DNA of 64,000 nt from positions 25,058 to 89,057 of the IMG/VR virus record IMGVR_UViG_3300027969_000074. The stretch is one strand, 5' to 3'. Source of the stretch: a virus. The notes below the pieces were generated by a model. It worked only from the letters and a program-made list of their open reading frames with translations, did no database searches and had not been told where the DNA came from. Of this stretch, positions 2,912 through 62,274 are shown one piece after another. The first letter of the stretch is position 1. Every line of letters starts with the position of its first letter. The translations under genes and the position numbers were made by a program.

Positions 2912-2931
2912 TTGTGTTTACTTATTTTTAG

Positions 2932-2939
2932 TTATTTAT
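2932..2939 (-). promoter_or_regulatory. ATAAATAA late-promoter-like motif
   Basis: The minus strand reads AATAAATAACT about 20 bases before the ATG at 2911. It is one of about ten intergenic copies of the same octamer, each a short distance upstream of a gene. It resembles the T4 late-promoter box TATAAATA. Function is inferred. Confidence 0.45.
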
Positions 2940-13569: not shown

Positions 13570-13587
13570 AATAATTAATCCTTTTGG

Positions 13588-13595
13588 TTATTTAT
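13588..13595 (-). promoter_or_regulatory. ATAAATAA late-promoter-like motif
   Basis: The minus strand reads TTAATAAATAACC 19-26 bases before the TTG start at 13569, in a 50-base gap. Same octamer as upstream of other operons. Confidence 0.4.
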
Positions 13596-13619
13596 TAAAA
13601 AAAGAAGGACTTGAGAGAG

Positions 13620-14805: not shown

Positions 14806-14825
14806 TAAATACTTTGTTTATTAAA

Positions 14826-15610: not shown

Positions 15611-15625
15611 TTGGTTTTAATATTT

Positions 15626-24721: not shown

Positions 24722-24727
24722 CACCAC

Positions 24728-35603: not shown

Positions 35604-38600
35604 TTATAATAATTTTTTAATTTGATCCTTTAAGTCATCGATTTGGCGTTGCTGTTGCTTGATTGCCTCAATTAAGACTGATACTAGTGCTGGATAGGCA
35701 ACTGCCTTGGTACCATTCGCATTTTCAAATACAACTTCTGGGAATACTGTTTCCATTTCCTGTGCAATAACACCCGCATGAACCCGTGTAGTATCTTCTT
35801 GATCATTTCTGGTGAATGTAACGCCTCTCATTGATGTTACCTTATCTAGAGCACCAGTGATGGTCTTCACATTATCTTTAACTGATCGATCTGAATATGC
35901 AATAATATTAGCAGTTGCATAAATATCACCGGCTACTTCAAATTTATAAGTCGGTGAGGCTCCATTACCAAGTGATAGTCTGCCGTTTGTGGCATCATAG
36001 TGCGTATTTGTTGCAGCTAAGGTAGTTGATCCAGAATAGTAAGCTAATCTTCCAGTAGTACCTGAGGTAATAGTTCCAGTAGTACCGCCTGATGTACCGG
36101 AAGAACCGTTAGCTCCGCTTGTTCCACTTGAACCAGTTGCACCGCTTGTTCCTGAGGTTCCACTTGATCCATTAGCTCCAGTTGCACCGCTTGTTCCTGA
36201 GGTTCCACTTGATCCATTAGCTCCAGTTGCACCGCTTGTTCCTGAGGTTCCACTTGTGCCAGATGTACCACTTGTTCCAGATGTACCGCTTGTGCCAGAT
36301 GCACCAGAAACTCCACTTGTACCTGAAGTTCCAGTTGAACCAGAGGTACCGCTAGTTCCAGAAGAACCGTTAGCTCCACTTGTTCCAGAAGTACCACTTG
36401 AACCATTTGCTCCAGAAGTTCCTGATGTACCTGAAGAACCGTTAGCTCCATTTGCTCCTGACGTACCGCTAGTACCACTTGAACCGTTTGCTCCGTTTGC
36501 TCCTGAGGTTCCTGATGTACCGTTTGTTCCAGCTAATGCGACTAGCGACCAATATGCAGCATTTGTAGGTATATCACCAGGAGCTGCATTTGCTATACAG
36601 ATATAGGAGCTTCCGAAATAATAAACAACGTCATTTACTGAATATGTAGTAGCTGTGTATAGTCCTTTCCACGTAAAGCTTGTACCGCTTGTACCTGATG
36701 TACCTCTTGTACCAGAAGTTCCTGATGAGCCGTTAGCTCCACTTGAACCTGAAGTTCCTGATGAACCGGTATTACCTGAGCTTCCAGAAGTTCCTGAGCT
36801 ACCGTTTGATCCACTAGAACCTGAAGTTCCAGAGGTTCCACTTGAACCATTAGAACCTGAGCTTCCAGATGTACCTGAAGTTCCTGAGCTACCGTTTGAT
36901 CCACTAGAACCTGAAGTTCCAGAGGTTCCACTTGAACCATTAGAACCTGAGCTTCCAGATGTACCTGAAGTTCCTGATGTACCTCTTGTACCCGAAGTCC
37001 CAGATGATCCTGCAACACCAGCTGTCGATATATCAACAATAATATCAGTACCAGATGATGGTGTCCAAGGTGTACCTGAAACATAAGTTACTGGAAATTC
37101 CCAATAGATTCCATTATCTACTCCTACCCCAGTTGTTCTATAATATACAATTTGACCACCAATTCCACCATTTGTTTTAATTAGCGTGCCAACTCCAATT
37201 GATGGATAAACTCCACTATAGTTTGTTGAAGTTAATGAAACTTCTGCTATGTTTAATATAGTGGTTGCCGCATCTAAATTACCGTTATTACTATAAATTT
37301 TAGTACTTGCTAATGGTGTACCCCAATCCCAACCGTCACTGATTGCTGCTCCACTTGCTCCAGTTGAACCAGAAGTTCCTGAGCTACCACTTGTACCAGA
37401 TGTACCACTTGTTCCAGAGGTACCTCGTGTTCCAGAGGTTCCACTAGAACCGTTTGATCCGGAAGTGCCGCTTGTTCCAGAAGAACCATTAGACCCTGAA
37501 GAACCTGAAGTGCCGCTTGTTCCAGAAGATCCGTTTGAACCACTTGATCCAGAAGTACCAGAAGACCCATTTGAACCGGAAGACCCACTAGTTCCGCTTG
37601 AACCGTTTGAACCTGATGTACCAGCCGTACCTGAGCTACCATTCGATCCACTAGAACCTGAGGTTCCGCTTGTGCCTGATGAGCCGTTAGAACCTGATGT
37701 TCCTGAGCTTCCGTTAGAACCGCTTGAGCCTGAAGTACCACTAGTTCCGCTTGAACCGTTTGAACCTGAAGAGCCTGAAGTTCCAGAAGAACCGGTTAAT
37801 CCGCTTGAACCGGAAGTTCCAGAAGAACCGTTTGAACCTGAAGTTCCGCTTGATCCATTAGCTCCTGAAGTTCCAGATGTTCCGCTTGAACCATTTGATC
37901 CACTTGAACCCGAAGTTCCAGAAGAACCAGTATTACCCGAGCTTCCAGAAGTTCCTGATGTTCCAGAGCTACCGTTTGAACCTGAAGAACCACTTGTACC
38001 AGATGAACCATTTGATCCACTAGAACCTGACGTTCCACTAGTTCCTGAGCTTCCATTTGATCCAGAAGTTCCGCTTGAACCATTTGATCCACTTGAACCT
38101 GATGTTCCTGAAGAACCATTAGATCCGCTTGAACCTGAAGTTCCAGAAGTACCTGAGCTACCATTAGAACCGGAAGAACCTGAAGTTCCGCTTGTTCCTG
38201 ATGAGCCGTTAGAACCGCTTGAACCTGATGTACCAGAAGTTCCACTTGAACCGTTTGAACCTGAAGTACCAGATGTTCCAGAAGAACCATTTGATCCAGA
38301 AGAGCCGGAGGTTCCAGAAGAACCGCTTGATCCATTTGAACCTGAAGTTCCGCTTGTTCCTGAGCTTCCATTAGAACCGCTTGAACCAGAAGTACCAGAA
38401 GTTCCTGAAGAACCAGTATTACCTGAACTTCCAGAAGTACCGGAAGTTCCACTAGAACCGTTAGAACCTGAACTACCTGAAGTTCCAGAAGAACCGTTTG
38501 ATCCACTAGAACCTGAAGTACCACTTGTTCCAGATGAGCCATTAGAACCAGAGCTTCCGTTTGAGCCTGAAGAACCTGAAGTTCCAGAACTACCATTCGA

Positions 38601-41600
38601 TCCGCTTGTGCCTGAAGTTCCAGAAGAACCATTTGAGCCATTAGAACCTGATGTTCCGCTTGTTCCTGAGCTTCCAGTAGCGCCCGACGTACCAGAAGTA
38701 CCAGCAGATCCACTTGAACCAGAAGTTCCAGAAGTTCCTGAGCTACCATTCGAACCAGAAGTTCCGCTTGTTCCGGAAGTTCCAGAGCTTCCGCCAACTC
38801 CGCTTGTTCCAGAAGTACCAGAAGTACCTCGTGTACCTGAAGTACCAGATGTACCAGCTAACCCATTAGCATGCCAAGAAAATGTATATTGAAGCCCATT
38901 CGCAAATTGTCCTGAGCTTGCAATTGAAGTAAGTGAAAGATTATAGGTTAATGTGGCTCCTGCGCCAGAGGTTGAAACAGCAGATACTGTCCAAAGTCCT
39001 AATTTTGAAGTATTTCCAATCTCATATGCTTGTAAATAAACAGTTGCTCCTGAATTTACAGCAGTTTGTAATTGAGTTAGCCATGTTCCATATCCAAAAC
39101 TATTGTATGCAACATAGTTTAAGCTTATAGTTACAGCAGACATAACAGCACCACTAGTGGAATCAGTAAGAAATTGACCAGCGGAGGTTGTTCCTGGAGC
39201 TCCAGTACCGGCATATGTCCATCTACCTGAATTAGCTCCATCATTTCCATTAATACCAGATGTACCAGAAGTTCCCGAGCTACCATTTGAGCCAGAAGAA
39301 CCTGGCGTACCAGAAGTTCCCGAGCTACCATTTGAGCCACTTGAACCTGAAGTTCCAGAAGAACCATTAGAACCAGAAGTTCCAGAAGAACCAGTTAATC
39401 CGCTAGAACCTGACGTACCGCTTGTTCCTGAAGAACCGTTTGAGCCAGAGCTTCCTGAGGTTCCAGCCGTACCGGAGCTACCGTTTGACCCACTAGAACC
39501 TGAAGTTCCTGAGCTTCCATTTGAGCCAGAAGAACCATTTGAGCCGCTTGACCCTGAAGTTCCAGAAGTTCCACTAGAACCGTTTGAACCTGAAGTTCCA
39601 GAAGAACCAGTATTACCTGAGCTTCCGGATGTACCACTTGACCCATTTGAACCTGATGTTCCAGCTGTTCCAGAAGAACCATTTGAGCCTGAAGTACCGG
39701 CGGTTCCACTTGTTCCTGAAGAACCTGAGCTTCCAGAGGTGCCTGATGTTCCAGCAGACCCAGAAGAACCATTTGATCCAGAAGAACCAGAAGTACCAGA
39801 GCTTCCGTTTGATCCACTTGAACCACTAGTACCTGATGTACCGCTTGATCCGTTAGATCCACTTGAACCGTTTGAACCTGAAGTTCCAGAGCTTCCATTT
39901 GAGCCAGATGTACCAGAAGAACCGTTTGAGCCAGATGTTCCTGAGCTTCCATTAGAACCCGAAGTTCCTGAGCTTCCATTTGAGCCGGATATTCCTGAGG
40001 TACCAGACGATCCATTAGACCCGTTAGAACCTGATGTTCCAGAAGTACCACTTGAACCATTTGATCCTGAAGAACCAGAAGTACCTGAGCTACCATTTGA
40101 TCCACTAGAACCGGCTGTTCCAGAAGTACCTGAGCTACCATTTGATCCATTAGAACCAGAGGTTCCAGAAGAACCATTAGAACCAGACGTTCCGCTTGTT
40201 CCCGAAGAACCACTTGAACCTGAAGTTCCGCTTGTTCCTGAAGAACCACTAGATCCATTTGAACCAGAAGTACCTGATGTTCCAGAAGAACCATTTGATC
40301 CTGAAGTACCTGAGGTACCGCTTGAGCCGTTTGAACCTGAAGAACCTGATGTTCCGCTTGTTCCTGAGCTACCATTTGAACCACTTGAACCTGATGTACC
40401 AGAAGTTCCAGTTGATCCAGAGCTTCCAGAAGTTCCTGAAGTTCCACTTGATCCATTTGAACCTGAGGTGCCAGCCGTTCCTGAAGAACCGTTTGATCCG
40501 CTAGAACCAGACGTTCCGCTTGTTCCCGAGCTACCATTTGATCCGCTTGAGCCAGATGTGCCAGACGTACCGCTTGAACCATTTGATCCTGAAGAACCTG
40601 AAGTTCCTGAGCTACCATTTGAGCCACTTGAGCCGGAAGTTCCAGAAGAGCCGTTTGAACCTGAACTTCCAGAGGTACCTGCTGTACCTGAACTACCATT
40701 TGAACCGGAAGTTCCAGAAGTACCACTTGATCCATTTGAACCTGAAGTACCAGCTGTTCCAGAAGAACCATTTGATCCTGAAGAACCTGAAGTTCCTGAG
40801 CTACCGTTTGATCCACTTGAACCTGATGTACCAGAAGTTCCAGAAGAACCATTTGATCCTGAACTACCATTTGAACCTGATGTTCCGGATGTACCACTTG
40901 AGCCATTAGAACCAGAAGTTCCACTAGTTCCTGATGAACCATTTGAGCCTGAAGTACCTGAGGTACCGTTTGATCCACTAGAACCGGAAGTTCCAGAGCT
41001 TCCATTTGAGCCTGAAGAACCAGAAGTGCCTGATGTTCCTGAGCTACCGTTTGATCCGCTTGTTCCAGAAGAACCGTTTGAGCCATTAGAACCAGATGTT
41101 CCAGAAGTTCCAGATGAGCCATTAGAACCAGAAGTTCCAGCAGTTCCAGAAGAACCATTTGATCCACTTGAACCTGAAGTTCCAGAAGTTCCGCTTGATC
41201 CATTAGAACCTGAAGTTCCTGAGGTTCCATTAGAACCATTTGATCCACTTGAACCTGAAGTTCCAGAAGTTCCACTTGATCCATTTGAACCGGATGTACC
41301 ACTTGAGCCATTAGAACCACTTGAACCAGATGTTCCACTAGTTCCTGATGAACCATTTGAGCCTGAAGTACCGGATGTTCCTGAGCTACCGTTTGATCCA
41401 TTAGAACCTGATGTTCCACTTGTTCCAGAAGACCCTGATGTACCAGATGTTCCAGAAGTACCAGAGCTACCGTTTGATCCGTTTGAACCTGAAGAACCTG
41501 AGGTTCCACTTGTTCCAGAAGTACCAGAGCTACCATTTGATCCACTAGAACCTGAAGTACCAGCTGTTCCAGAAGAACCATTTGAACCTGAAGTACCCGC

Positions 41601-43568
41601 TGTTCCAGAAGAACCATTTGAACCTGAAGTACCAGAGGTTCCGCTTGTTCCAGAAGAACCATTAGAGCCAGAGCTTCCAGAAGTTCCAGAAGAACCGTTT
41701 GATCCACTAGAACCGGCAGTACCTGAAGTACCAGAGCTACCGTTTGATCCAGAAGTACCAGAGGTTCCACTTGTTCCAGAAGTACCAGAGCTACCGTTTG
41801 AGCCTGAGCTACCAGAGGTTCCACTTGTTCCAGAAGTACCAGAGCTTCCGTTTGATCCACTTGAACCTGAAGTTCCAGAAGTTCCGCTTGAACCGGTTGA
41901 ACCTGAAGTACCTGAGCTTCCATTAGAACCTGAAGTTCCTGAGCTACCACTTGAGCCGTTTGATCCGCTAGTTCCCGAAGACCCATTTGATCCATTAGAA
42001 CCAGAAGTTCCAGAAGAACCATTAGAACCTGATGTTCCACTTGTTCCAGAAGAACCATTAGATCCGCTTGATCCAGAAGTACCAGAGCTACCGTTTGAAC
42101 CTGATGTTCCACTTGTTCCAGAAGAACCACTTGAACCTGAAGTACCTGAACTTCCATTAGAACCTGATGTTCCTGAGCTTCCATTTGAACCTGAAGTTCC
42201 AGAAGAACCAGTTAATCCGCTTGAACCAGAAGTTCCAGAAGAACCGTTTGAACCTGAAGTTCCGCTTGATCCGTTTGAACCTGATGTTCCAGAAGTTCCG
42301 CTTGAACCTGAAGTTCCGTTTGATCCTGAAGTTCCGTTTGATCCGCTAGAACCGGAAGTACCTGAGCTACCATTTGAACCATTAGATCCAGAAGTACCAG
42401 ATGTTCCTGAGCTACCGCTTGTTCCGGAAGAGCCGTTTGAACCGGAAGTTCCAGAAGTACCAGTTGAACCGTTTGAGCCATTAGAACCGGAAGTACCTGA
42501 GCTACCATTTGAACCATTAGAACCTGAAGTACCAGAAGTTCCAGATGAGCCGTTAGAACCTGAAGTACCAGAAGTTCCAGATGAGCCGTTAGAACCTGAA
42601 GTACCCGAAGTACCTGAGGTTCCAGAAGAACCATTTGAACCCGAAGTACCTGAAGTTCCTGATGTACCAGTTGAGCCGCTAGAACCTGATGTTCCAGAGC
42701 TTCCGTTTGAGCCGGCTGTTCCAGAAGTACCCGAACTACCGTTTGATCCATTTGAACCTGATGTACCAGAAGTTCCAGTTGATCCAGAGCTTCCTGAGGT
42801 TCCGCTTGAGCCATTAGATCCATTTGAACCAGAGGTTCCAGAAGAACCTCCTGTTCCGGCTGTGCCGGAAGAACCTGAAGTTCCGCTTGTTCCAGAAGTA
42901 CCAGATGTTCCGCTTGATCCATTAGATCCAGAAGAACCAGAGGTACCTGAGCTTCCGTTTGATCCAGAAGAACCAGCGGTACCTGAGCTTCCGTTTGATC
43001 CAGAAGAGCCGCTTGTTCCAGATGTTCCGCTTGTTCCAGTTGAACCCGACGTTCCAGAAGTACCAGAGCTTCCGTTTGATCCGCTTGAACCTGAAGTACC
43101 AGTTGAACCTGAAGTTCCAGCTGTTCCAGATGAACCACTTGTACCTGATGTACCTGAGCTACCATTAGAACCTGAAGTACCAGAAGTTCCAGATGAGCCG
43201 TTAGAACCAGAAGTACCGGAAGTTCCAGCAGATCCACTAGTTCCTGAAGTACCACCAAGTATCCAGTTTGTACCGTTACTTTCTAATGATAAACTTCCAT
43301 ATTGAATTATAGATTTAGTAAGAGATCCGTCAATTGTTTGAGATGAAGTAGTTGCAACGGTTATTGTACCAGAACCTGAGTTTTTTACAATATAAGCTTT
43401 ACCTTTTATGCCTACTGCACTTGGAAGAGTGACTGTAAATGTTCCAGTTGTACACTCTATAAAATAATCATCAACTCCTATTGAATAAGTAGTACTTATC
43501 TGAGTTAAGGGTAGGGTTATTCCACCCAATGAAATTAGCCCTTTTCTGGTTATAAATTCTTTTGCCAT
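35604..43568 (-). CDS. Giant Gly-X-Y repeat fibre A with C-terminal S74 chaperone domain
   Basis: In this 2654-residue protein, residues 1-105 form a beta-rich head (TYSIGVDDYFIECTTGTFTVTLPS). Gly-X-Y triplets follow (GTS, GSS, GSN, GNG), broken by three folded islands: about 38860-39260, about 37010-37350 and about 36530-36695, the last a WKGLYTATTYSVNDVVYY carbohydrate-binding-like module. The C-terminus is a peptidase S74 intramolecular chaperone of 96 residues beginning SDRSVKDNV. Ser2559 and Lys2564 are the expected catalytic dyad, and the coiled end LIEAIKQQQRQIDDLKDQI follows. S74 domains trimerise fibres and then cut themselves off. The rest is therefore probably a trimeric, collagen-like tail fibre. 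It is read last among the giant genes. Confidence 0.85.
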   Translation of the reverse strand: MAKEFITRKGLISLGGITLPLTQISTTYSIGVDDYFIECTTGTFTVTLPSAVGIKGKAYIVKNSGSGTITVATTSSQTIDGSLTKSIIQYGSLSLESNGTNWILGGTSGTSGSAGTSGTSGSNGSSGTSGTSGSNGSSGTSGTSGSSGTAGTSGSTGTSGSSGSNGSSGTSGTSGSTGTSGTSGTSGSSGSNGSSGTAGSSGSNGSSGTSGSSGSNGSSGTSGTSGTSGTSGSSGTAGTGGSSGTSGSNGSNGSSGTSGSSGSTGTSGTSGSNGSNGSSGTSGTAGSNGSSGTSGSSGSTGTSGTSGTSGSNGSSGTSGTSGTSGSNGSSGTSGTSGSNGSSGTSGTSGSNGSNGSSGTSGSNGSNGSTGTSGTSGSNGSSGTSGSSGTSGTSGSNGSNGSSGTSGSSGSNGTSGSNGTSGSSGTSGTSGSNGSSGTSGSNGSSGTSGSSGLTGSSGTSGSNGSSGTSGSNGSSGTSGSSGSSGTSGTSGSNGSSGTSGSSGSNGSSGTSGTSGSNGSSGTSGSNGSNGSSGTSGSNGSSGSSGTSGSNGSSGTSGSTGSSGTSGTSGSSGSNGSSGTSGTSGTSGSSGSNGSSGTSGTSGTSGTSGSNGSSGTSGTAGSSGSNGSSGTSGSSGSNGSSGTSGTSGTSGSNGSSGTAGTSGSNGSSGTAGTSGSSGSNGSSGTSGTSGTSGSSGSNGSNGSSGTSGTSGTSGSSGTSGTSGSNGSNGSSGTSGTSGSNGSSGTSGTSGSSGSNGSSGTSGSNGSSGTSGTSGSSGSNGSNGTSGTSGSNGSSGTSGTSGSSGSNGSSGTAGTSGSNGSSGTSGTSGSNGSNGSSGTSGSNGSSGTSGTSGSSGSNGSSGTSGSSGSNGTSGTSGSNGSSGTSGTSGSNGSSGTSGTSGSNGSSGSNGSSGTSGTSGSSGSNGSSGTSGSSGSNGSSGTAGTSGSNGSSGTSGTSGSNGSSGTAGTSGSSGSNGSSGTSGSSGSNGSSGTSGSSGSNGSSGTSGTSGSSGSNGSSGTSGTSGSSGSNGSSGTAGTSGSNGSSGTSGTSGSSGSTGTSGTSGSSGSNGSSGTSGTSGSSGSNGSSGTSGTSGSNGSSGTSGTSGSNGSSGSSGTSGTSGSSGSSGTSGTSGSNGSSGTSGSNGSNGSSGTSGTAGSSGSNGSSGTSGSSGSNGSSGTSGTSGSNGSNGSSGTSGISGSNGSSGTSGSNGSSGTSGSNGSSGTSGSNGSSGTSGSNGSSGSNGSSGTSGTSGSSGSNGSSGTSGSSGSNGSSGSAGTSGTSGSSGSSGTSGTAGTSGSNGSSGTAGTSGSNGSSGTSGSSGNTGSSGTSGSNGSSGTSGTSGSSGSNGSSGSNGSSGTSGSSGSNGSSGTAGTSGSSGSNGSSGTSGTSGSSGLTGSSGTSGSNGSSGTSGSSGSNGSSGTSGTPGSSGSNGSSGTSGTSGINGNDGANSGRWTYAGTGAPGTTSAGQFLTDSTSGAVMSAVTISLNYVAYNSFGYGTWLTQLQTAVNSGATVYLQAYEIGNTSKLGLWTVSAVSTSGAGATLTYNLSLTSIASSGQFANGLQYTFSWHANGLAGTSGTSGTRGTSGTSGTSGVGGSSGTSGTSGTSGSNGSSGTSGTSGSSGSAGTSGTSGATGSSGTSGTSGSNGSNGSSGTSGTSGSNGSSGTSGSSGSNGSSGSNGSSGTSGTSGSSGSNGSSGTSGSSGSNGSSGTSGTSGSSGNTGSSGTSGTSGSSGSNGSSGTSGTSGSNGSSGSSGTSGSSGSNGSSGTSGTSGSNGSSGTSGTSGSSGSNGSSGTSGTSGSSGSNGSSGTSGTSGSSGSNGSSGTSGSSGSNGSSGTSGSNGSSGTSGTSGSSGSNGSSGTSGSSGSNGSSGTSGTSGSSGNTGSSGTSGSSGSNGSSGTSGTSGANGSSGTSGSNGSSGTSGSSGLTGSSGTSGSSGSNGSSGTSGTSGSSGSNGSSGTSGSNGSSGTSGTSGSSGSNGSSGTAGTSGSNGSSGTSGSSGSNGSSGTSGSSGSNGSSGTSGTSGSSGSNGSSGTSGTSGSNGSSGTSGTRGTSGTSGTSGTSGSSGTSGSTGASGAAISDGWDWGTPLASTKIYSNNGNLDAATTILNIAEVSLTSTNYSGVYPSIGVGTLIKTNGGIGGQIVYYRTTGVGVDNGIYWEFPVTYVSGTPWTPSSGTDIIVDISTAGVAGSSGTSGTRGTSGTSGTSGSSGSNGSSGTSGTSGSSGSNGSSGTSGTSGSSGSNGSSGTSGTSGSSGSNGSSGTSGSSGNTGSSGTSGSSGANGSSGTSGTRGTSGTSGTSFTWKGLYTATTYSVNDVVYYFGSSYICIANAAPGDIPTNAAYWSLVALAGTNGTSGTSGANGANGSSGTSGTSGANGANGSSGTSGTSGANGSSGTSGTSGANGSSGTSGTSGSTGTSGTSGVSGASGTSGTSGTSGTSGTSGTSGTSGATGANGSSGTSGTSGATGANGSSGTSGTSGATGSSGTSGANGSSGTSGGTTGTITSGTTGRLAYYSGSTTLAATNTHYDATNGRLSLGNGASPTYKFEVAGDIYATANIIAYSDRSVKDNVKTITGALDKVTSMRGVTFTRNDQEDTTRVHAGVIAQEMETVFPEVVFENANGTKAVAYPALVSVLIEAIKQQQRQIDDLKDQIKKLL
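35607..35894 (-). other. Peptidase S74 intramolecular chaperone domain of fibre A
   Basis: The final 96 residues start with the Ser-Asp-x-x-x-Lys cleavage/catalytic motif, continue with a mixed helical core (TRVHAGVIAQEMETVFPEVV, ALVSVLIEAIK) and end in a coiled coil. This is the standard self-cleaving chaperone of trimeric phage fibres. Confidence 0.85.
36066..43249 (-). repeat. Gly-X-Y coding repeat of fibre A (with three folded islands)
   Basis: Triplets of Gly followed by Thr/Ser/Asn/Ala dominate, most often GTSGTSGSSGSNGSS. The islands at about 38860-39260, 37010-37350 and 36530-36695 interrupt the run. Hydroxylatable or charged residues of animal collagen (Pro, Lys, Glu) are nearly absent here. 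Confidence 0.9.
36136..36977 (-). repeat. Tandem DNA duplications inside fibre A (45-bp and 90-bp periods)
   Basis: A 45-base unit beginning GTTGCACCGCTTG repeats at 36136, 36181 and (partly) 36226. A 90-base unit repeats without change at 36787-36876 and 36877-36966, with 11 further matching bases. Most other repeat DNA in the fibres is scrambled by synonymous codons, so these exact copies are recent duplications or unresolved assembly structures. Confidence 0.8.
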
Positions 43569-43573
43569 TTATT

Positions 43574-43603
43574 TTTTCTTTTTTCACCTCTCCAAAAGAA
43601 AAG
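43574..43603 (-). promoter_or_regulatory. Hairpin with Shine-Dalgarno-like loop before fibre A
   Basis: The minus-strand leader reads TTTTCTTTTGGAGAGGTGA followed by AAAAAGAAAA and then AAATAAATG. TTTTCTTTT can pair with AAAAGAAAA, placing GGAGAGGTGA in the loop. The purine-rich loop is the only Shine-Dalgarno-like sequence seen before a major gene in the window; its distance to the ATG (16 bases) is too long unless the stem shortens it. Prediction only. Confidence 0.4.
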
Positions 43604-43680
43604 TATGTTATTGACTCTATAGATATATATTCATTCTCAACTAGTCAAATATTTAGTCTGCATATTTTAGTTTTTAATTA

Positions 43681-46600
43681 TTAAAACATTATTCTACTTC
43701 CTACTTTAACTGTCCAAGTTCCTGAAGTTACTACTGCATTCAAGTAAACGTTTGTTCCGTCAGTTGATGTAGCAAATGATATACCTGCAGTTGAGCTTCC
43801 AATATCTGGAGTTGAATAGTCAGTATCTACAGTTGTTGCATTATCCCATGCGGCCATTACTGTACCAGCTCTTTTGCTAGTTCCATTAGAAACAAAGTAG
43901 TCAAATACTGCTGAATTTCCAGCCGATACTAAGATTGTAATTAGTACTCCACTTGCACTTACTGAACCTCCATTATATGAACTTATACCTAAACTTGTTC
44001 CATCAAATGTTAAGTTTGCTTCTGCATTTGCTTGGCCTGATGTACCAGTTGCAGTTAATACCCTGTTATCTGAATTATTTGTGATATTAGCAACTCCAGA
44101 AGTACCAGATGAACCGGCAGTTCCAGATGTACCAGTTGAACCTGATGTTCCAGCCGTTCCGCTTGTTCCAGAAGAACCGTTTGACCCTGAAGTTCCACTT
44201 GATCCATTTGAACCAGAGCTGCCCGATGTACCAGAAGTTCCCGAGCTACCATTTGAGCCAGAAGTTCCACTTGATCCATTTGAACCTGAACTACCGCTTG
44301 ATCCACTTGTTCCTGAAGTACCTGAAGTTCCGCTTGAGCCGTTTGAGCCGCTTGAACCTGAAGTACCTGAGGTTCCGCTTGACCCATTTGATCCTGAAGA
44401 ACCTGATGTTCCTGAGCTACCAGAAGTACCAGAGGTTCCACTAGAACCTGAAGTACCTGAGCTACCGTTTGATCCACTTGAACCTGATGTACCAGAAGTG
44501 CCATTAGAGCCAGACGTACCAGAGCTACCATTTGATCCACTTGAACCAGAGGTTCCGGAAGTACCAGAAGAGCCGTTAGATCCAGAAGTACCTGATGTTC
44601 CAGTTGATCCACTTGAACCAGAAGTTCCAGAAGTACCTGAGCTACCATTTGATCCACTTGTTCCTGAAGTTCCAGAAGAACCATTAGAGCCAGAAGTTCC
44701 TGACGTACCAGTTGAGCCGCTAGAACCTGATGTACCGCTTGTTCCTGAGGTTCCAGAAGAACCATTTGAACCTGAGGTTCCTGAAGAGCCGTTTGAACCA
44801 GAAGAACCTGAAGTACCTGAGCTACCATTTGATCCACTTGAACCAGATGTACCAGAAGTACCAGTTGAACCTGAAGTTCCAGAAGTTCCGCTTGATCCAG
44901 AAATACCGGCAACAAACATTTCTAAAAGAATATCATCACCGGCAGATGGAGTCCAAATTGAACCATATTCATAAACTACTGAGAAGTTCCAATATGCTCC
45001 AGCATCGGTAGGTATTGAAATAACTCGATAATATGTAAGATTAGTATGAGAAAGATCCTGTAATTGAATAAGTGTTCCAATACCAACTGCTGCAAATGGA
45101 ATTGCATAATTTGTACTACTTAATGATACTTCCGCAATACTTAAAGTATTAGTAGATGCATTAAATGCAGAGTTATTACTAGATATTTTAGTACTAGCTA
45201 ATGGTGTTCCAAAATCCCAACTATCATCAATTGCGGCTCCACTATATCCACTTGTTCCAGCAGAACCAGAAGTACCGCTTGAACCTGAACTACCTGAAGT
45301 ACCGCTTGAACCTGAACTACCTGAAGTACCATTTGAACCTGAAGTTCCAGATGTACCGCTTGAACCGGCTGTTCCTGAGCTGCCGGATGTTCCAGAAGAT
45401 CCATTAGACCCGTTTGATCCACTTGAACCTGAAGTACCAGAAGTTCCGCTTGAGCCTGAAGAACCGTTTGATCCGCTAGAGCCGGATGTTCCTGAGCTAC
45501 CGTTTGACCCGCTTGAACCAGAAGTTCCACTTGTTCCAGATGTACCGCTTGAGCCTGAAGTGCCCGATGTTCCAGAGCTACCATTTGAGCCTGAAGTTCC
45601 AGAGCTTCCGTTTGAGCCACTAGAACCAGATGTTCCAGAAGAACCACTTGTACCTGAGCTTCCGTTTGATCCACTAGAACCGCTTGTTCCTGAAGAACCG
45701 TTAGAACCTGAGCTTCCAGATGTACCAGAAGTTCCAGAGCTACCATTTGAACCTGAAGTTCCGCTTGTTCCTGAGGTACCACTTGAACCATTTGATCCAG
45801 ATGAACCAGAAGTACCACTTGAACCATTTGAGCCGCTTGAGCCAGATGTTCCTGAAGTTCCTGAGCTTCCATTTGACCCACTAGAACCTGAAGTTCCTGA
45901 GCTTCCGTTTGAGCCAGAAGAACCACTTGAACCAGAAGTTCCAGTTGATCCGCTTGAACCTGAAGTTCCGCTTGTACCGTTAGAACCAGAAGTACCTGAG
46001 CTACCTGAGCTTCCATTAGAACCTGAAGTTCCAGAAGTTCCACTTGAGCCATTAGAACCAGAAGTTCCGCTTGAACCGTTAGAACCAGAAGTACCAGAAG
46101 TTCCAGCAGTACCAGATGTTCCTGAGCTACCGCTTGTTCCGGAAGAGCCGTTTGAACCGGAAGTTCCAGAAGTACCACTTGAACCTGACGTACCTGATGT
46201 TCCAGATGAACCTGAAGTACCTGAAGTACCTGATGTTCCAGATGAACCTGAAGTTCCGCTTGAACCATTTGAACCTGAAGTTCCAGAAGTACCACTTGAA
46301 CCGCTAGAACCAGAAGTACCACTTGAACCGCTAGAACCAGATGTTCCACTTGAGCCGTTAGAACCAGAAGTACCAGCTGATCCGCTTGAACCTGAAGTTC
46401 CACTTGATCCTGAGGTACCGCTTGATCCGCTTGAGCCTGAAGTACCGCTTGAGCCAGATGTACCAGATGTACCGCTTGAGCCAGATGTACCAGAAGAGCC
46501 GTTTGAACCTGATGTACCAGAAGTTCCTGATGTACCAGATGTTCCTGATGTGCCATTAGATCCGTCTACTCCACTTATTCCACTTGTTCCTGATGTTCCA

Positions 46601-49600: not shown

Positions 49601-52600
49601 GTACCACTTGAACCATTAGAACCTGAAGTTCCGCTTGAACCATTAGAACCTGAAGTACCACTTGAACCACTTGAACCTGAAGTACCGGATGTACCTGAAG
49701 TACCGGATGTACCTGAAGTTCCACTTGAACCTGAAGTACCGGATGTTCCAGAGCTTCCAGAAGATCCGTTAGAGCCGGAAGTTCCAGAGGTTCCGCTTGA
49801 TCCTGAAGAACCATTAGAACCAGAGCTTCCAGAAGTTCCAGAAGATCCGTTAGAGCCGGAAGAACCTGATGTACCGCTAGTTCCAGTTGAACCCGATGTT
49901 CCAGCAGTTCCGCTTGTTCCAGATGAACCTGAAGAACCACTTGAACCAGATGTACCACTTGAGCCATTTGAACCAGAGGTTCCTGAAGTTCCAGAAGAAC
50001 CTGATGTACCGGAAGTTCCGGTTGATCCTGAACTTCCGCTTGTTCCAGATGTACCAGTTGAACCTGATGTTCCACTTGAACCAGAAGTACCTGAGGTTCC
50101 GCTAGATCCATTTGAGCCACTAGAACCTGATGTTCCAGCAGTTCCACTAGAGCCTGAAGTACCTGAGGTTCCACTAGTACCAGAGCTTCCATTAGATCCA
50201 CTTGAACCTGAAGTACCTGAGGTTCCGCTAGTTCCTGAGCTTCCAGATGTACCAGAAGTTCCAGAAGAACCTGACGTTCCTGAACTACCATTTGAGCCTG
50301 ATGTTCCACTTGTTCCAGAAGTACCTGAGCTACCACTTGTTCCAGAAGTTCCAGATGAGCCGTTAGAACCTGAAGTCCCGGATGTTCCAGATGTACCGTG
50401 TGTACCATTAACGCCGCTTATACCTGAACTGCCAGAAGTTCCAGATGAACCACTTGTACCTGAAGTTCCTGAGCTACCATTTGATCCTGAAGAACCTGAT
50501 GTTCCAGAAGAACCCGAAGTTCCGCTTGATCCTGATGTACCAGAAGTTCCAGATGTACCAGTTGATCCACTTGATCCTGAAGTTCCGCTTGAACCTGATG
50601 TACCACTTGATCCATTAGATCCAGATGAGCCTGACGTACCAGAAGTACCGCTAGATCCATTTGAGCCATTAGAACCTGAAGTACCGCTTGTTCCAGAAGA
50701 ACCATTTGAGCCTGAAGTACCAGAAGTCCCACTTGAACCAGAAGTTCCTGAACTTCCATTTGAACCTGATGTTCCAGAAGTTCCTGAGCTACCATTAGAG
50801 CCGGATGTGCCAGAGGTTCCTGACGTACCAGAGCTACCAGATGTACCAGAAGTTCCTGAGGTTCCAGAAGTTCCAACTGAACCTGAAGTACCTGAGCTAC
50901 CGTTTGAGCCTGAAGTACCAGATGATCCGTTAGAACCAGAAGTTCCTGATGTTCCTGAGCTTCCACTAGAACCTGAAGTACCTGACGTTCCGGAAGAGCC
51001 ATTTGAGCCGGAAGTTCCAGATGTACCGCTTGTTCCTGAAGTACCGGATGAACCGTTTGAACCGGACGTTCCTGATGTTCCGCTAGTTCCGCTAGTTCCG
51101 CTTGATCCATTAGATCCTGATGTACCAGAAGAACCACTTGTTCCAGATGTTCCGGAGCTACCGTTTGATCCACTAGTACCGGAAGTTCCAGTTGAACCGG
51201 AAGACCCGCTTGTACCTGAAGTTCCGCTTGACCCATTAGATCCTGAAGAACCTGAAGTTCCGCTTGTACCAGAGCTGCCGTTTGAGCCTGAGGTTCCACT
51301 TGATCCATTAGAACCCGAAGTTCCACTTGAACCATTTGAGCCTGACGTACCAGATGTTCCACTTGAACCATTTGAACCTGAGGTTCCGCTTGTTCCATTA
51401 GAACCAGAAGTTCCGCTTGTTCCAGAAGAACCGTTTGATCCTGATGTGCCGCTTGAGCCATTAGAACCAGAAGTTCCGCTAGTTCCAGATGTACCAGAGC
51501 TTCCATTTGAACCTGACGTACCAGAGCTACCGTTTGATCCAGAAGAACCAGATGTTCCGGAAGTACCCGAAGAGCCGTTAGATCCAGAAGTACCAGAGCT
51601 ACCATTTGATCCACTTGAACCTGATGTTCCAGAAGAACCATTAGAGCCGTTAGATCCAGAAGTACCAGATGTTCCAGAAGAACCTGAAGTTCCGCTTGTT
51701 CCAGAAGAACCACTAGAACCTGAAGTACCAGAAGAGCCGTTTGAACCTGAAGTTCCAGAGCTTCCATTTGAACCTGAAGTACCAGAAGTTCCGCTTGTTC
51801 CAGAAGTACCTGATGTACCGCTTGACCCACTAGAACCATCTGAGCCAGATGCTAAATTTGAATTATTATATAAAGAAAATAAATTATTTAAGGTAACTCC
51901 GTTTAATGTAGTAAAAGCTCCACCTACAAATATTAAATTATTCTTAAGTAAAATTGTATTGATTTGCGATCCACTTGGAGAACCTGGGCCTACTGAACTA
52001 CCTAAGGCTGCATAGAATCTAATATCTTCAGTACCGTCTGCAAATAATCTAACTAATTTACGGCGAGTACCTCCATTAAATGAATCAAAACCTCCACCTA
52101 CAATTATTCGTCCATCTGACTGAACCTTTATTGTAAATCCAAGTGATGTAAATGCTCCAGTAAAGCCGTTTCCTAATTTAGTATAGAAAGCAGTATCTTC
52201 AGTACCATCTGAATTTAATCGGATTAAACCATTTCGGGTATTTCCATTAAATGTGGTAAATCCGCCACCTACTAAAATTAAACCGTCTGCTTGGCAAGCA
52301 ATTGCCATTATATCAATTGCATTTGAACCAAGATTTGAATTAAATGCTGTATCTAATGTACCGTCTGAATTTAATTTAATTAATTCAGCAGAGGTTCCTA
52401 TTAATATAGAATTATCTGATTGAATAGTGATTGCATTAACTTGAGAAGCAATACCTGAACCTAAATTTGAATAGAATGAAGTATCTTCAGTACCATTTGA
52501 ATTTAATCTAACTAAACGGTTTCTGGTACTTCCATTAAACGAGGTAAAATCACCGCCTACTAAAATCTTTCCATCTGACTGTATTGCTGATTGAATAACT

Positions 52601-53259: not shown

Positions 53260-53338
53260 CTGGCCTAATTTCTTTTTTTTGAATAGACTAAATATTAGCC
53301 TATTTACTGATCAATATTATTTATTTAAGTTAGGCCAG
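53260..53338 (-). promoter_or_regulatory. Structured 5' leader of fibre B with promoter-like motif
   Basis: The minus-strand leader contains CTGGCCTAA (53330-53338) and TTAGGCCAG (53260-53268), a perfect 9-bp pair whose second arm touches the ATG. Nested inside is AATAGGCTAA (53295-53304) with TTAGTCTATT (53282-53291), 10 bp with one G-U and a 3-base loop. An ATAAATAA motif lies between them (53317-53324). The outer stem would hide the start codon. Confidence 0.6.
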
Positions 53339-53340
53339 TA

Positions 53341-56300
53341 TTATATTAGTCCATCACTAATTATTTCAACTCTAGCGGCTACGGCAATTGAATCACCTGC
53401 ATTATTTGCAATATTAATAATTAGAGCGCCGTGTGCAATTGTAAAAGTTGGAAGTGAAACCCAAAGCGCTGAATCTTGAGCAAGCGTAATTTCAGTAAAT
53501 CCAGTTCCAACAATTGAAATTGTTCCACTAACATTTTTAACAGCTCCACTATACATTCGATAATCAACCTCATGTGAATTAGCAACACTTCCAATTACAT
53601 AAATTTGAAGACCATAGATGCGGTTAGCTGTATTAAACTTAACTTCCTCAGATGGATAGGTAATGTATAAATTATCATTACCAAATGGAGGAATTGGATC
53701 AGCATATAAAATATTTGAATGAGACTGTTTTACTCCAGTTGCTCCATTTTGGTGGCGACTGTATACAGTTTCGTTTGGCATTTCAGCAACAGCACTAGAT
53801 CCAATTTGTAGCGCAGTTAATGTAGTATCTTCAAATATTCCAAATGTTGAATCAACTACACTTGTTCCACCTGCGCCAAATACAGTATATTGAGATTGAG
53901 TACCAGATACAGAAACCGAAGTTCCGCTTGTACCGGAAGTACCGCTTGTTCCAGAAGTACCATTTGAACCATTTCGGCCAGAGGTACCAGAGGTACCATC
54001 AGAACCAGATGTTCCAGTTAATCCGCTTGTTCCGCTTGAACCATTAGTTCCAGAGACTCCGTCAATACCTGATGTTCCAGATGAACCGTTAGAACCAGAA
54101 CTTCCACTTGTTCCAGTTGAACCTGAAGTACCAGAAGTACCAGTTGAACCAGAAGTTCCGCTTGTTCCAGAAGTTCCAGTTGAACCTGAAGTTCCAGAAG
54201 TTCCGCTTGAACCTGAAGTTCCAGAAGTTCCGCTTGAACCAGAAGTTCCAGAAGTACCCCTAGTTCCAGAAGTTCCAGAAGAACCGGCAGTTCCGCTTGT
54301 TCCAGTTGAACCTGACGTACCGCTTGAACCGTTTGTACCTGAGACTCCATCAATACCGGAAGTACCAGAGCTACCGTTTGAGCCAGAAGAACCGGAAGTA
54401 CCAGCTGAACCAGATGTTCCAGAAGTACCAGTTGAACCAGAAGTACCAGAAGTACCAGCTGAACCAGATGTTCCAGAAGTACCAGTTGAACCAGACGTAC
54501 CTGAAGTACCGCTTGTTCCGGAAGTTCCGCTTGTGCCAGAAGTACCAGAAGTTCCTGAAGTACCAGTTGAACCTGAAGTTCCGCTTGTTCCTGATGTACC
54601 AGTTGAACCTGAAGTTCCACTTGTTCCAGACGTACCAGATGTTCCGCTTGTTCCAGTTGAACCTGAAGTACCGGAAGTTCCTGAAGTACCACTTGTTCCT
54701 GAAGTTCCTGAGCTACCAGATGTTCCGGTTGAACCGGAAGTTCCGCTTGTTCCAGATGTTCCAGTTGAACCACTAGTTCCAGATGTTCCAGTTGAACCAC
54801 TAGTTCCAGATGTTCCAGTTGAACCAGAAGTACCACTTGTGCCTGACGTACCAGTTGATCCAGAAGTACCGCTTGTTCCAGAAGAACCTGAGGTACCAGT
54901 TGAACCTGAGGTACCTGAGCTACCGTTTGTTCCAGAGACTCCATCAATACCAGAAGTTCCGCTTGTGCCTGAAGTTCCGCTTGTGCCTGAAGTTCCAGTT
55001 GAACCCGAAGTTCCACTTGTGCCGGAAGTACCATTTGAACCTGAAGTTCCAGAAGTACCAGTTGAACCTGAAGTTCCACTTGTTCCTGAAGTACCAGTTG
55101 AACCCGAAGTACCAGATGTTCCAGAGGATCCGCTAGTTCCAGAAGTTCCAGTTGAACCTGATGTTCCAGACGTACCTGAAGTTCCGCTTGTACCTGAAGT
55201 ACCGTTTGATCCAGATTCGCCTGATGTACCAGAGCTACCGTCTGTTCCAGAAACTCCGTCTATACCGCTTGTTCCAGCAGTGCCGCTTGTACCGGAAGTA
55301 CCACTTGTGCCGGAAGTACCATTTGAACCTGAAGTTCCAGAAGTACCAGTTGAACCTGAAGTTCCACTTGTGCCTGAAGTTCCAGAAGTACCGCTTGTTC
55401 CTGATGTTCCAGCCGAACCTGATGTACCTGATGTACCAGAGGTTCCGCTTGTTCCAGAAGTACCAGAGGTTCCGCTTGTTCCAGAAGTACCAGAACTTCC
55501 GTTTGACCCGGAAGTACCACTAGTTCCACTAGAACCAGTTGCAGCAATTATGGCTAAGAAAATTTGATGATTATTTGCAAATTGTGGATTACCGCCAGAA
55601 CTAACTAGTGCAACTGGAACAGTCCAGTAATTAGAGGCTCCAGTAATTAAAGTAGTTGCTCCATTAATAACCCATACTTGATAATTTGCACTATTGTTTC
55701 GATCTTGAATTGTTAATTGTTGACCTACTTGTAATAGAGCTAAAAATATATCAATATCAGTTATTGGAGCATCGGTTAAATGATTTATGTTTATTTGTGT
55801 TGAATTAATTAAAGTTGCATTATTCCAAATAATATGACCATCTCCAGGATTACCGGATTGTGCATTAGTTTTAGCTTCATAATAGAATACACTAGTTGAA
55901 ACACCATTTGCGCCAGAAGTACCACTAGTTCCAGTAGAACCGGAAGTACCAGAGGTCCCATTAGATCCTATTCCACTTGTACCTGATGTACCGTTAGTGC
56001 CTGAAGTTCCTGATGAACCTGAGGTTCCTGAAGTACCGGTAGAACCTGAAGTTCCTGAGCTACCATCTGTTCCAGAGACTCCATCAATACCTGAAGTACC
56101 TGAAGTTCCGTCAGAACCGGCAGTTCCATCTATTCCTGAAGTACCTGATGTGCCAGAAGTTCCATCTGAACCGTTTGAACCGGAAGTTCCGCTTGTTCCA
56201 GAAGTACCGCTTGTGCCGGATGTTCCGTTTGAGCCTGATTCGCCAGAAGTACCTGAGCTACCGTCTGTGCCTGAGACTCCATCAATACCAGAAGTACCAG

Positions 56301-60639: not shown

Positions 60640-60645
60640 ATTCTA

Positions 60646-62274
60646 TTATCTAGTTATTTGGTGTCGGTGCGATGTTCCATAAGGAGTCGCATTTGTCATG
60701 GTATAGTTACGATACGATACGTTAGTACCGTATGAGTCAACAACATTAAACGTTGATAAAACATAGTTTGCTGTAATATCTGCGTTTAATGCATCTAAGT
60801 CAACTACACTGCTTAAACTTAGTGTAGCTGGCATTGCTGCTGTAAAATTGATGTATGAAGTACCGGTTAATAAATTAAATGGATTACTTCCATCAGTAAA
60901 TATTCGGGTTCCTAGTGCTCTAATATCACTTGATGTTGTTGGAACTGCTGATGATGGTCCATAAAATATTAGATTTAAAAAACTAACTGTAGTATTTCCG
61001 CCAGTTACAAAACTCGATAAGTAAGTTTGATATGCATCAATTACTTTTACTCGATAATATATTGTAGTTGAAGCAAATAGTGCAGTATCATTATGGTTAG
61101 TTAATGTAATACTTGAAGTACCTGGACCAATTGAAACGGCTGATCCAATATCTACCCATGTACTATTATTTAATGAGTATTGTAGAGTATAACTAGATAA
61201 GGCACTGTTTACACTATTTCGGGTAATTGTTCCACTTAAATTAGTATTAATATTTCCCTTTTCTCTTTTGGTATTTGTTTCAGGTGAAGTACTTGAAACG
61301 GCTGCAACGGTTAATGAAATTGATGGTGCTGAATATGCAATTGGTGTAATATTTAAAGTAGCAGTTGCTGTTGCACCAGCTGAATCAGTTACAACATATC
61401 TGTAATTAAAGGCAGCTGTATTATAATTAGTATCAGTGAGTGAATGTGTATAGGTACTTGGTGTGGTGGTTGAAGTTGATAAAACTGTCCATGAACCTGC
61501 ACCGCCTCTTCGCCATTCAAGAGAAACACTAGTAACGGTTGCGCCTAAACTATTTATTGTATAACTAAAATTTAAAACATTACTAATTGCAGTTTGATTA
61601 AATGCAATTGACGTACTGGAAGTTAAGGCAACGGTTGGTGTAATTGGCTCAGCAATTGCTAAACTAATTACCTCAGCTGGAGTTTTTCCAGTTGCTGGAA
61701 TAGTATCGCCATTTACATAACGGCCAAAGGTTCTACCTCCAGTTAATGAAACTATTAAATCAGTTGGATAAGTATAGGTATCACCGCTAGTTCCAGAAGT
61801 ACCATGTGAACCGGCCTGACCAGAAGTACCCGAAGTACCATCTGAACCTGAAGAACCAGATTGACCGCTTGTACCAGAAGAACCGGCTTGGCCTGAAGTA
61901 CCCGAAGTACCATCTGAACCATCTTGACCAGAAGTACCAGAAGTACCATGCGAACCTGAAGAACCAGATTGACCGCTTGTACCGGAAGAACCGGCTTGGC
62001 CTGAAGTACCCGAAGTACCATCTGAACCAGAAGTACCTGAAGAAAATCCTAATGGGCTTGTTCCACTTGAACCTGATGTTCCAGAAGAACCAGTTGCGCC
62101 TGAAGTACCACTTGAACCAGAGGTACCGTTTGAGCCAGAACCACCGGATCCGGCACCAGGAGAATCACTATAATAAGCATTACCCGCAGAATCAACTACT
62201 AAAAACTTATTTAATGAATTATCTTGACTTAGGTTGCTGAGGTCAACCTGTTTTATTTTGAGTTTATTAGACAT
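60646..62274 (-). CDS. Shorter Gly-X-Y fibre-type protein with Ig-like C-terminal domains
   Basis: In this 542-residue protein, residues 1-40 (LKIKQVDLSNLSQDNSLNKFLVVDSAGNAYY) form a small attachment-type head. Residues about 41-165 are Gly-X-Y triplets with Gln, His and Asp (GQAGSSGTSG, GSHGTSG). The remainder consists of beta sandwich repeats (SVSLEWRRGGAGSWTVLST; YTLQYSLNNSTWVDIGS; TIYYRVKVIDAYQTYLSSF), resembling fibronectin/Ig-like modules, and ends in a beta-rich tip. It is the first gene of the fibre operon, behind an ATAAATAA motif 31-38 bases upstream, and may be the short partner that links the giant fibres to the baseplate. Role inferred. Confidence 0.75.
   Translation of the reverse strand: MSNKLKIKQVDLSNLSQDNSLNKFLVVDSAGNAYYSDSPGAGSGGSGSNGTSGSSGTSGATGSSGTSGSSGTSPLGFSSGTSGSDGTSGTSGQAGSSGTSGQSGSSGSHGTSGTSGQDGSDGTSGTSGQAGSSGTSGQSGSSGSDGTSGTSGQAGSHGTSGTSGDTYTYPTDLIVSLTGGRTFGRYVNGDTIPATGKTPAEVISLAIAEPITPTVALTSSTSIAFNQTAISNVLNFSYTINSLGATVTSVSLEWRRGGAGSWTVLSTSTTTPSTYTHSLTDTNYNTAAFNYRYVVTDSAGATATATLNITPIAYSAPSISLTVAAVSSTSPETNTKREKGNINTNLSGTITRNSVNSALSSYTLQYSLNNSTWVDIGSAVSIGPGTSSITLTNHNDTALFASTTIYYRVKVIDAYQTYLSSFVTGGNTTVSFLNLIFYGPSSAVPTTSSDIRALGTRIFTDGSNPFNLLTGTSYINFTAAMPATLSLSSVVDLDALNADITANYVLSTFNVVDSYGTNVSYRNYTMTNATPYGTSHRHQITR

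What the first reader, a model, noticed from the sequence alone, without database searches (positions are those of the whole stretch)
35604..62274. Four consecutive Gly-X-Y repeat proteins, three of them giant, occupy about 40% of the window
About 8,300 residues of near-pure Gly-Ser/Thr/Asn/Asp triplets across three genes is extreme even for phage fibres. The composition lacks Pro, so a normal collagen triple helix is doubtful. A polyglycine-II-like bundle or a sugar-stabilised helix is more plausible. The large coding cost suggests very long fibres or a capsule-like fringe.
Basis: partly seen in the sequence, partly recalled or inferred. Interest (0 to 1): 0.78.

Follow-up and report, generated by a model that had tools for sequence, protein, structure and literature searches.

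The report
Giant phage fibres with sugar-adding enzymes
A large freshwater virus of bacteria carries three enormous collagen-like fibre genes made almost only of glycine, serine and threonine, beside enzymes related to one that attaches sugars to serines of repetitive proteins, and the two recur together in many unrelated large phages, which suggests these fibres are built to be sugar-coated.

Summary
Four adjacent minus-strand genes encode Gly-X-Y proteins; the three giants (2654, 3192, 2432 aa) hold 2124 triplets, 77% of their length, with one proline. The fourth is only 21% triplets. Interrupting folded domains and folded ends make up the rest. Uninterrupted runs reach 428 triplets here and 1062 in relatives. 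Independent contigs repeat them, substitutions are mostly synonymous (dN/dS about 0.2), and indels are whole triplets, so they are real genes. The fibre-tip chaperone Peptidase_S74 and tail/baseplate neighbours mark them as modular tail-fibre shafts.

The new point is the flanks. Downstream lie a GT4-FkbM protein, methyltransferases and a C-terminal domain of the TibC/Aah protein O-heptosyltransferase family (NCBIfam TIGR04414 above cut-off; TibC crystal sequence E=9e-52; catalytic Asp and four iron-finger Cys kept). Upstream lies a GT-A-fold protein. Of 80 viral TibC-like loci, 59 (25 of 33 clusters) have Gly-X-Y tracts within 10 kb, against 1 of 105 control loci. A sister clade with homologous fibre caps but other shafts lacks the cassette. 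Best reading: extremely long fibres glycosylated on serine by phage-encoded enzymes. Glycosylation and helix type are inferred, not shown.

The parts
35604..43568 (-). Gly-X-Y giant 1 (P0001, 2654 aa, 701 triplets; uninterrupted run of 402 triplets at about 39231-42848)
35730..35894 (-). Peptidase_S74 (endosialidase-type intramolecular chaperone) domain at the C-terminal tip of P0001
   Evidence: PF13884 E=2.1e-16; tail-fibre PHROGs
36531..36677 (-). short folded interruption D3 in P0001 (49 aa)
37020..37343 (-). folded interruption domain D1 in P0001 (108 aa), shared with P0002 and relatives
   Evidence: model pLDDT 71, no PDB match
38865..39230 (-). folded interruption domain D11 in P0001 (122 aa)
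43681..53259 (-). Gly-X-Y giant 2 (P0002, 3192 aa, 784 triplets; uninterrupted run of 428 triplets at about 45232-49083)
51847..53001 (-). DUF5122 beta-propeller near the N-terminus of P0002
   Evidence: PF17164 E=6.2e-64
49084..49524 (-). folded interruption domain D13 in P0002 (147 aa), also in relative G018
44908..45231 (-). second copy of interruption domain D1, in P0002
53341..60639 (-). Gly-X-Y giant 3 (P0003, 2432 aa, 639 triplets, Asp at Y positions)
55537..55896 (-). folded interruption domain D6 in P0003
58360..58713 (-). folded interruption domain D32 in P0003
60646..62274 (-). short Gly-X-Y protein (P0004, 542 aa, 38 triplets) with a 376-aa C-terminal domain conserved in phages that lack Gly-X-Y shafts
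62345..63298 (-). phrog_4417 protein, inferred GT-A-fold glycosyltransferase (invariant H-D-S-D), upstream neighbour
   Evidence: pLDDT 94; WbbM 6u4b E=6.7e-07 and other GT-A enzymes
31779..34589 (-). 936-aa protein: GT4 glycosyltransferase domain plus C-terminal FkbM methyltransferase domain
   Evidence: PF00534 2.5e-13, PF05050 1.1e-16; TIGR01444 7.3e-25
31074..31769 (-). Methyltransf_24-type protein of the cassette
   Evidence: PF13578
30434..31126 (-). second Methyltransf_24-type protein of the cassette
   Evidence: PF13578 1.3e-09
27656..30430 (-). 924-aa protein: N-terminal methyltransferase, C-terminal TibC/Aah-family O-heptosyltransferase domain
27665..28735 (-). TibC/Aah (BAHT) domain with catalytic Asp and four iron-finger cysteines
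   Evidence: TIGR04414 265 bits against cut-off 200; PDB 4rap E=9e-52; motif kept in 80 of 80 viral homologues
34914..35600 (-). 228-aa protein of unknown function, 3 bp downstream of P0001, conserved between the fibre genes and the cassette in relatives

Best explanation
The four genes encode modular fibre proteins of a large tailed phage whose terminase relatives infect Bacteroidota. An N-terminal cap probably attaches to the virion, one or more very long proline-free Gly-X-Y shafts carry folded knob domains, and a C-terminal tip follows, in one case with an S74 chaperone that helps a trimer assemble. The adjacent phage genes form a glycosylation cassette: a TibC-like protein O-heptosyltransferase, a GT4-FkbM enzyme, two further methyltransferases and a GT-A-fold enzyme. 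During infection the cassette probably adds a sugar to serines of the shafts and extends and methylates it; about 2,480 X/Y serines are available in the three giants, most of them at Y. The sugars would make a shaft without proline stiff, soluble and protease resistant. Shaft length and tips change by recombination within the repeats. Shown: gene structure, selection on the repeats, modular architecture, enzyme family membership, genetic linkage. Inferred: presence in the virion, trimeric helix, serine modification, the sugar used, and the benefit.
For: S74 domain, tail-fibre PHROGs, baseplate/tail genes in the same cluster. TibC/Aah family: TIGR04414 265 bits, cut-off 200; TibC crystal sequence E=9e-52 with the residue mutated in 4rb4 (D110) and all four iron ligands aligned. 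TibC modifies serine, not threonine (PMC4358343). Linkage: 59 of 80 viral TibC-like loci, 25 of 33 clusters, have >=15 Gly-X-Y triplets within 10 kb, against 1 of 68 PhoH and 0 of 37 FkbM loci (Fisher 1.7e-19 by cluster). Reverse: 25 of 50 contigs picked only for the repeat DNA hold TIGR04414 above cut-off, 10 of 12 among those of 100 kb or more, against 1 of 15 Gly-X-Y-less records. It recurs in other lineages: Microcystis phage Mel-JY01 and a 735-kb phage, LR756501. Sister clade G011/G012/G016/G019 keeps fibre-cap relatives and gene order but has neither Gly-X-Y shafts nor the cassette. Glycosyltransferase fold on the upstream side. Repeats under purifying selection.
Against: No direct evidence of modification or of presence in virions. 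Characterised BAHTs act on beta-helix autotransporter repeats, not on Gly-X-Y. Eight of 33 clusters lack Gly-X-Y within 10 kb; two of these have it elsewhere on the contig, several are short contigs, but the G037 lineage (up to 176 kb) and LR756504 carry the enzyme without a detected Gly-X-Y tract. Half of the Gly-X-Y-selected contigs show no BAHT, mostly short ones. ADP-heptose genes occur in only some of these phages and not in this 89-kb contig, so the donor sugar is unproven. Control loci and the sister-clade comparison are not phylogenetically independent. phrog_4417 also occurs in huge phages without Gly-X-Y nearby.
Confidence: 0.7

Rival explanations
1. The cassette modifies the host surface (LPS, capsule or a host glycoprotein), for example to block superinfection, and sits beside the fibres only because both concern the host surface.
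For: LPS heptosyltransferase models match weakly (heptsyl_trn_I 20-32 bits); phage O-antigen modification is established biology (own knowledge). Some phages carry the enzyme without Gly-X-Y.
Against: The domain passes the equivalog cut-off of the protein O-heptosyltransferase family and scores far below the LPS families' cut-offs. Linkage to Ser/Thr-rich repeats recurs across 25 clusters, and the clade without such shafts lacks the cassette. In one locus lacking Gly-X-Y (L297) the enzyme sits beside a different Ser/Thr/Gly-rich protein.
Confidence: 0.15
2. The shaft is not a collagen triple helix but a polyglycine-II bundle or a glycosylated, largely disordered brush.
For: Gly-Ser-Ser and Gly-Thr-Ser triplets lack the imino acids that stabilise collagen; only one triplet of 2124 has Pro. 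Thr is at X, whereas bacterial collagens place it at Y (PMC8968730).
Against: The strict three-residue register and X/Y asymmetry fit an ordered helix. Some relatives mix GPT/GPA triplets with GTS/GSS in one protein (L238, 84 of 203 triplets with Pro), linking these shafts to ordinary phage collagens. Phage collagen EPclA forms a stable trimeric triple helix (PMC3368898).
Confidence: 0.35
3. The glycosyltransferases modify the phage's own DNA and have nothing to do with the fibres.
For: DNA glucosylation is a common role for phage glycosyltransferases (noted in PMC12619734).
Against: The TibC family is protein-specific and the cassette lies in the structural gene cluster beside the fibres in many lineages.
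Confidence: 0.05
4. The repeats are assembly artefacts or unexpressed satellite-like DNA.
For: Highly repetitive sequence in metagenomic contigs; near-identical strains differ by 72-198 bp indels that could be collapsed repeats.
Against: dN/dS about 0.2 and frame-preserving indels; the same arrays in many samples, with equal triplet totals over the same stretch in several contigs of the 271-kb phage; no frame breaks in runs of up to 1062 triplets.
Confidence: 0.02

Closest known systems
TibC/TibA and Aah/AIDA-I (bacterial autotransporter heptosyltransferase, BAHT) systems
   Same: Same enzyme family (TIGR04414) with catalytic Asp and four-Cys iron finger; the enzyme gene sits beside a long, Ser-rich repetitive surface protein
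   Different: Acceptor is a phage Gly-X-Y fibre rather than a beta-helix autotransporter; the domain is fused to methyltransferase or GT4 domains; donor and product untested
Phage and prophage collagen-like tail proteins (E. coli EPclA/EPclB)
   Same: Gly-X-Y shaft between folded caps; modular domains; trimeric tail-fibre role
   Different: EPclA recombinant protein is not glycosylated; those shafts are far shorter; here Pro is absent and Thr is at X
Bacillus BclA glycosylated collagen-like spore filaments
   Same: Ser/Thr-rich Gly-X-Y protein stabilised and decorated by O-linked sugars
   Different: BclA uses GPT triplets with Thr at Y and other glycosyltransferases (own knowledge; glycosylation noted)
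Mimivirus collagens with the bifunctional lysyl hydroxylase/glycosyltransferase
   Same: A virus encoding both collagen-like fibres and the enzyme that glycosylates them
   Different: Hydroxylysine glycosylation in a eukaryotic host; unrelated enzyme
Mycobacteriophage virion glycosylation by phage-encoded glycosyltransferases
   Same: Phage enzymes glycosylate virion proteins
   Different: Capsid and tail-tube C-termini rather than giant repeat shafts; no BAHT
Polyglycine-II phage adhesins (e.g. S16 gp38; from memory, not tested)
   Same: Glycine-rich repeats in a phage receptor-binding protein
   Different: Short bundles within one tip adhesin, not shafts of hundreds of triplets

Membership tests
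TibC/Aah protein O-heptosyltransferases (TIGR04414, BAHT) | Profile match above curated cut-off | tested here: met
   265 bits against cut-off 200, residues 566-922 of the 924-aa protein
TibC/Aah protein O-heptosyltransferases (TIGR04414, BAHT) | Catalytic Asp (TibC D110) and four iron-finger cysteines | tested here: met
   aligned; CxxC..C..C and GD motif in 80 of 80 viral homologues
TibC/Aah protein O-heptosyltransferases (TIGR04414, BAHT) | Heptose transfer to serine of the acceptor, dodecameric ring | not testable with these tools
   needs biochemistry
TibC/Aah protein O-heptosyltransferases (TIGR04414, BAHT) | Genetic partner is a Ser-rich repetitive protein | tested here: met
   Gly-X-Y tract within 10 kb in 25 of 33 clusters
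Collagen-like (Gly-X-Y) proteins | Long uninterrupted Gly-X-Y register | tested here: met
   runs of up to 428 triplets in the window
Collagen-like (Gly-X-Y) proteins | Imino acids (Pro/Hyp) at X/Y as in stable triple helices | tested here: not met
   1 Pro triplet in 2124
Collagen-like (Gly-X-Y) proteins | Triple-helical trimer | not testable with these tools
   needs CD, diffraction or cryo-EM
Phage tail fibres | Fibre-tip chaperone or tail-fibre homology | tested here: met
   Peptidase_S74 E=2.1e-16; tail-fibre PHROGs
Phage tail fibres | Present in virions | not testable with these tools
   uncultivated phage
Polyglycine-II structures | Packed PG-II helices in a solved or confidently predicted structure | not testable with these tools
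   only single-chain prediction available; shafts not modelled

The most novel reading that the evidence does not exclude
Many large phages carry a self-contained fibre-glycosylation system in which a TibC-type enzyme heptosylates serine at the Y position of proline-free collagen-like helices, so that sugars replace proline/hydroxyproline as the stabiliser and allow sugar-coated fibres approaching a micrometre in length.
Probability: 0.4. Interest if true: 0.88.

Novelty: new variant of a known kind. Interest (0 to 1): 0.74.

Why it matters
If right, it extends protein O-heptosylation from bacterial autotransporters to virus fibres and offers a test of a long-standing question: how a collagen-like helix can be stable without proline. 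It would also explain what recurrent phage GT4-FkbM-TibC gene clusters are for, and gives a marker (TIGR04414 plus Gly-Thr-Ser tracts) for sugar-coated phage fibres in metagenomes. Stable, secretable, proline-free fibres would interest biomaterials research. The runs (up to 1062 triplets in relatives) exceed those of animal fibrillar collagens (about 338 triplets, own knowledge).

Tried and rejected
1) Assembly artefact: rejected. 2) Long plus-strand ORFs (up to 1194 aa) opposite the repeats: artefacts, since one antisense frame of these codons has 0-1 stops. 3) Fold of interruption domain D1: model of pLDDT 71, no PDB match with E below 0.1; led nowhere. 4) phrog_4417 as a Gly-X-Y-specific partner: not exclusive, Gly-X-Y in 30 of 60 loci and absent near most distant homologues. 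5) A universal phage ADP-heptose pathway: not found; HldE-kinase-like genes (about 300 bits) in G021, G070, LR756501, G096 and G097, GmhA-like in a few, none in this contig. 6) Streptomyces and Rhodococcus phages with GT4 relatives: no long Gly-X-Y near those genes, so GT4 alone is not the marker. 7) X/Y asymmetry from pattern-selected loci was biased by the pattern, so it was recomputed on BAHT-selected and phrog_4417-selected loci. 9) No held paper links this enzyme family to phages or to collagen-like fibres; subscription journals and preprints are not covered.
Full report
OBSERVATION. The window is bases 25058-89057 of an 89,057-bp viral contig, whose end coincides with the window's end. 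Four consecutive minus-strand genes encode Gly-X-Y proteins. The three giants total 8278 aa, of which 6372 aa (2124 triplets) are strict Gly-X-Y; the fourth has 38 triplets in 542 aa. Triplets are overwhelmingly GTS, GSS and GSN (GTS, GSD and GID in the third giant). There is one proline triplet. Runs of 402 and 428 triplets are uninterrupted.

REALITY OF THE REPEATS. Third-position variation is high while Gly positions are fixed. Against a diverged homologue, P0003 repeats have dN/dS 0.21 and 50 of 53 indels are multiples of 9; another pair gives 0.19 and 71 of 73. Repeat alignment favours multiples of 9, so that part is supporting only. The arrays hold many more long exact repeats than synonymous shuffles, so they grow by tandem duplication and then drift synonymously. 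Near-identical strains differ by single 198-, 126- or 72-bp indels with at most one substitution, which is either real length polymorphism or collapsed assembly. Equal triplet totals over the same stretch in several contigs of a 271-kb relative argue that assembly is generally faithful.

ARCHITECTURE. Non-repeat segments fall into shared domain families. P0001 = D19-shaft-D11-shaft-D1-shaft-D3-shaft-D0, where D0 holds Peptidase_S74. P0002 = D2-propeller-shaft-D13-shaft-D1-shaft-D20. In three near-identical relatives a single 4.2-kaa protein joins the P0002 N-terminal end to the P0001 C-terminal end across 1034-1062 uninterrupted triplets, and G031 holds the D1-D20 end followed by a D19 start. 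The repeats therefore serve as recombination sites that fuse, split and re-tip fibres; the direction of change is unknown. If fully extended as a triple helix the shafts would be roughly 550-670 nm each (arithmetic only).

IDENTITY OF THE PHAGE. Terminase, baseplate and tail-tube genes are in the window. The best named terminase relatives are Sphingomonas phage PAU, Tenacibaculum phages and Flavobacterium phage MaF61, suggesting a Bacteroidota host, which is inferred. Close relatives come from many metagenome contigs.

THE FLANKING CASSETTE. Immediately downstream (35600 to 27656) lie a conserved small protein, a GT4-FkbM protein, two Methyltransf_24 proteins, and a 924-aa protein with an N-terminal methyltransferase and a C-terminal domain that passes the curated cut-off of NCBIfam TIGR04414, hepto_Aah_TibC. 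Its best solved relative is TibC (4rap, E=9e-52), with D110 (mutated in 4rb4) and the four iron-finger cysteines aligned (roles in PMC4358343). TibC heptosylates Ser but not Thr of repetitive autotransporter passengers. Upstream, phrog_4417 (no annotated function) folds with pLDDT 94 into a GT-A glycosyltransferase fold with an invariant H-D-S-D motif.

LINKAGE TEST. I searched viral contigs with the TibC-like domain: 233 stretches, 80 loci kept. Fifty-nine of 80, or 25 of 33 clusters at 85% identity, contain a Gly-X-Y protein of at least 15 triplets within 10 kb, always dominated by Ser/Thr triplets except in a Pro-mixed lineage. Control loci around PhoH (1 of 68) and another FkbM gene (0 of 37) rarely do. 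Reciprocally, among 50 contigs chosen only because they hold the repeat DNA, 25 encode TIGR04414 above cut-off, 10 of 12 among contigs of at least 100 kb, versus 1 of 15 Gly-X-Y-less records. Fisher values are; contigs and controls are not independent lineages, so they are indicative. The pair also occurs in Microcystis phage Mel-JY01, where the enzyme gene starts 1.7 kb after a Gly-X-Y gene whose GenBank CDS calls lie on the wrong strand, and in the 735-kb phage LR756501.

NATURAL EXPERIMENT. Sister phages with about 69% terminase identity keep the order of homologous fibre caps (D10, D9, D0 relatives), but their shafts are not Gly-X-Y and they have no TIGR04414, GT4-FkbM or phrog_4417 homologue there. 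Shaft type and cassette thus change together. This is one evolutionary contrast.

REGISTER. In loci chosen without regard to the repeat, Thr, Ile and Val sit at X, and Ser (mainly), Asn and Asp at Y. Bacterial collagens instead put Pro at X and Thr at Y (PMC8968730). An ordered three-residue helix is therefore likely, with serine in the position where threonine is glycosylated in BclA-type collagens (own knowledge). A lineage mixing GPT with GTS/GSS (L238) connects these shafts to normal phage collagens.

EXCEPTIONS. The G037 lineage and LR756504 have the enzyme without detected Gly-X-Y; many Gly-X-Y contigs lack it, mostly short ones. Donor-sugar genes are patchy, so ADP-heptose would usually come from the host, or the donor may differ.

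VERDICT. Real, selected, giant, modular phage fibres with a dedicated protein-glycosylation cassette: a new variant of phage collagen-like fibres combined with a BAHT enzyme. Presence in virions, serine modification and helix type remain to be shown.

Noticed in passing
window 24358-24722 (+): A complete tmRNA gene inside the phage, on the opposite strand to most genes, with predicted tag GNTTFWSLVNQGVNTPVTEELLAA.
   Followed up: no
window 36256-60470, plus strand: Long plus-strand ORFs (475, 1188, 1194, 801 aa and others) opposite the repeats come from the codon pattern, since one antisense frame is nearly stop-free.
   Followed up: yes
L205 (Microcystis phage Mel-JY01, PP395634.1) 1-3052: GenBank CDS calls at 1-651 and 739-2298 lie antisense to a 1016-aa Gly-X-Y gene that is cut by the record start; the pattern hits are on the plus strand.
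   Followed up: partly
window 63338-63982 (-): Protein with long poly-Thr linkers, cut by the contig end.
   Followed up: no
L215 (LR756501.1) 12895-34288: The 735-kb phage genome encodes three large Gly-X-Y proteins (2816, 2372 and 1664 aa; 775, 121 and 275 triplets) in one cluster, far from its TibC-like gene.
   Followed up: partly
G021:45339-46292, G070:43710-44648, LR756501:209213-210175: HldE-kinase-like genes (TIGR02198, about 306-319 bits, below the curated cut-off of 345) in phages with TibC-like enzymes, hinting that some make their own heptose donor.
   Followed up: partly
L217 (Streptomyces phage Beuffert) 3974-7311 and L219 (Sollertia) 12705-15786: tRNA-Thr genes sit beside phage glycosyltransferase genes (three tRNA-Thr in Beuffert), possibly serving a Thr-rich product.
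   Followed up: no
L297 11146-13344: A TibC-like locus lacking Gly-X-Y has a different Gly/Ser/Thr-rich protein directly beside the enzyme, a possible alternative acceptor.
   Followed up: no
window 6803-7615 and 5361-6425 (-): A separate FkbM methyltransferase and an unknown neighbour are retained in the clade without Gly-X-Y shafts, so they are not part of the fibre cassette.
   Followed up: partly
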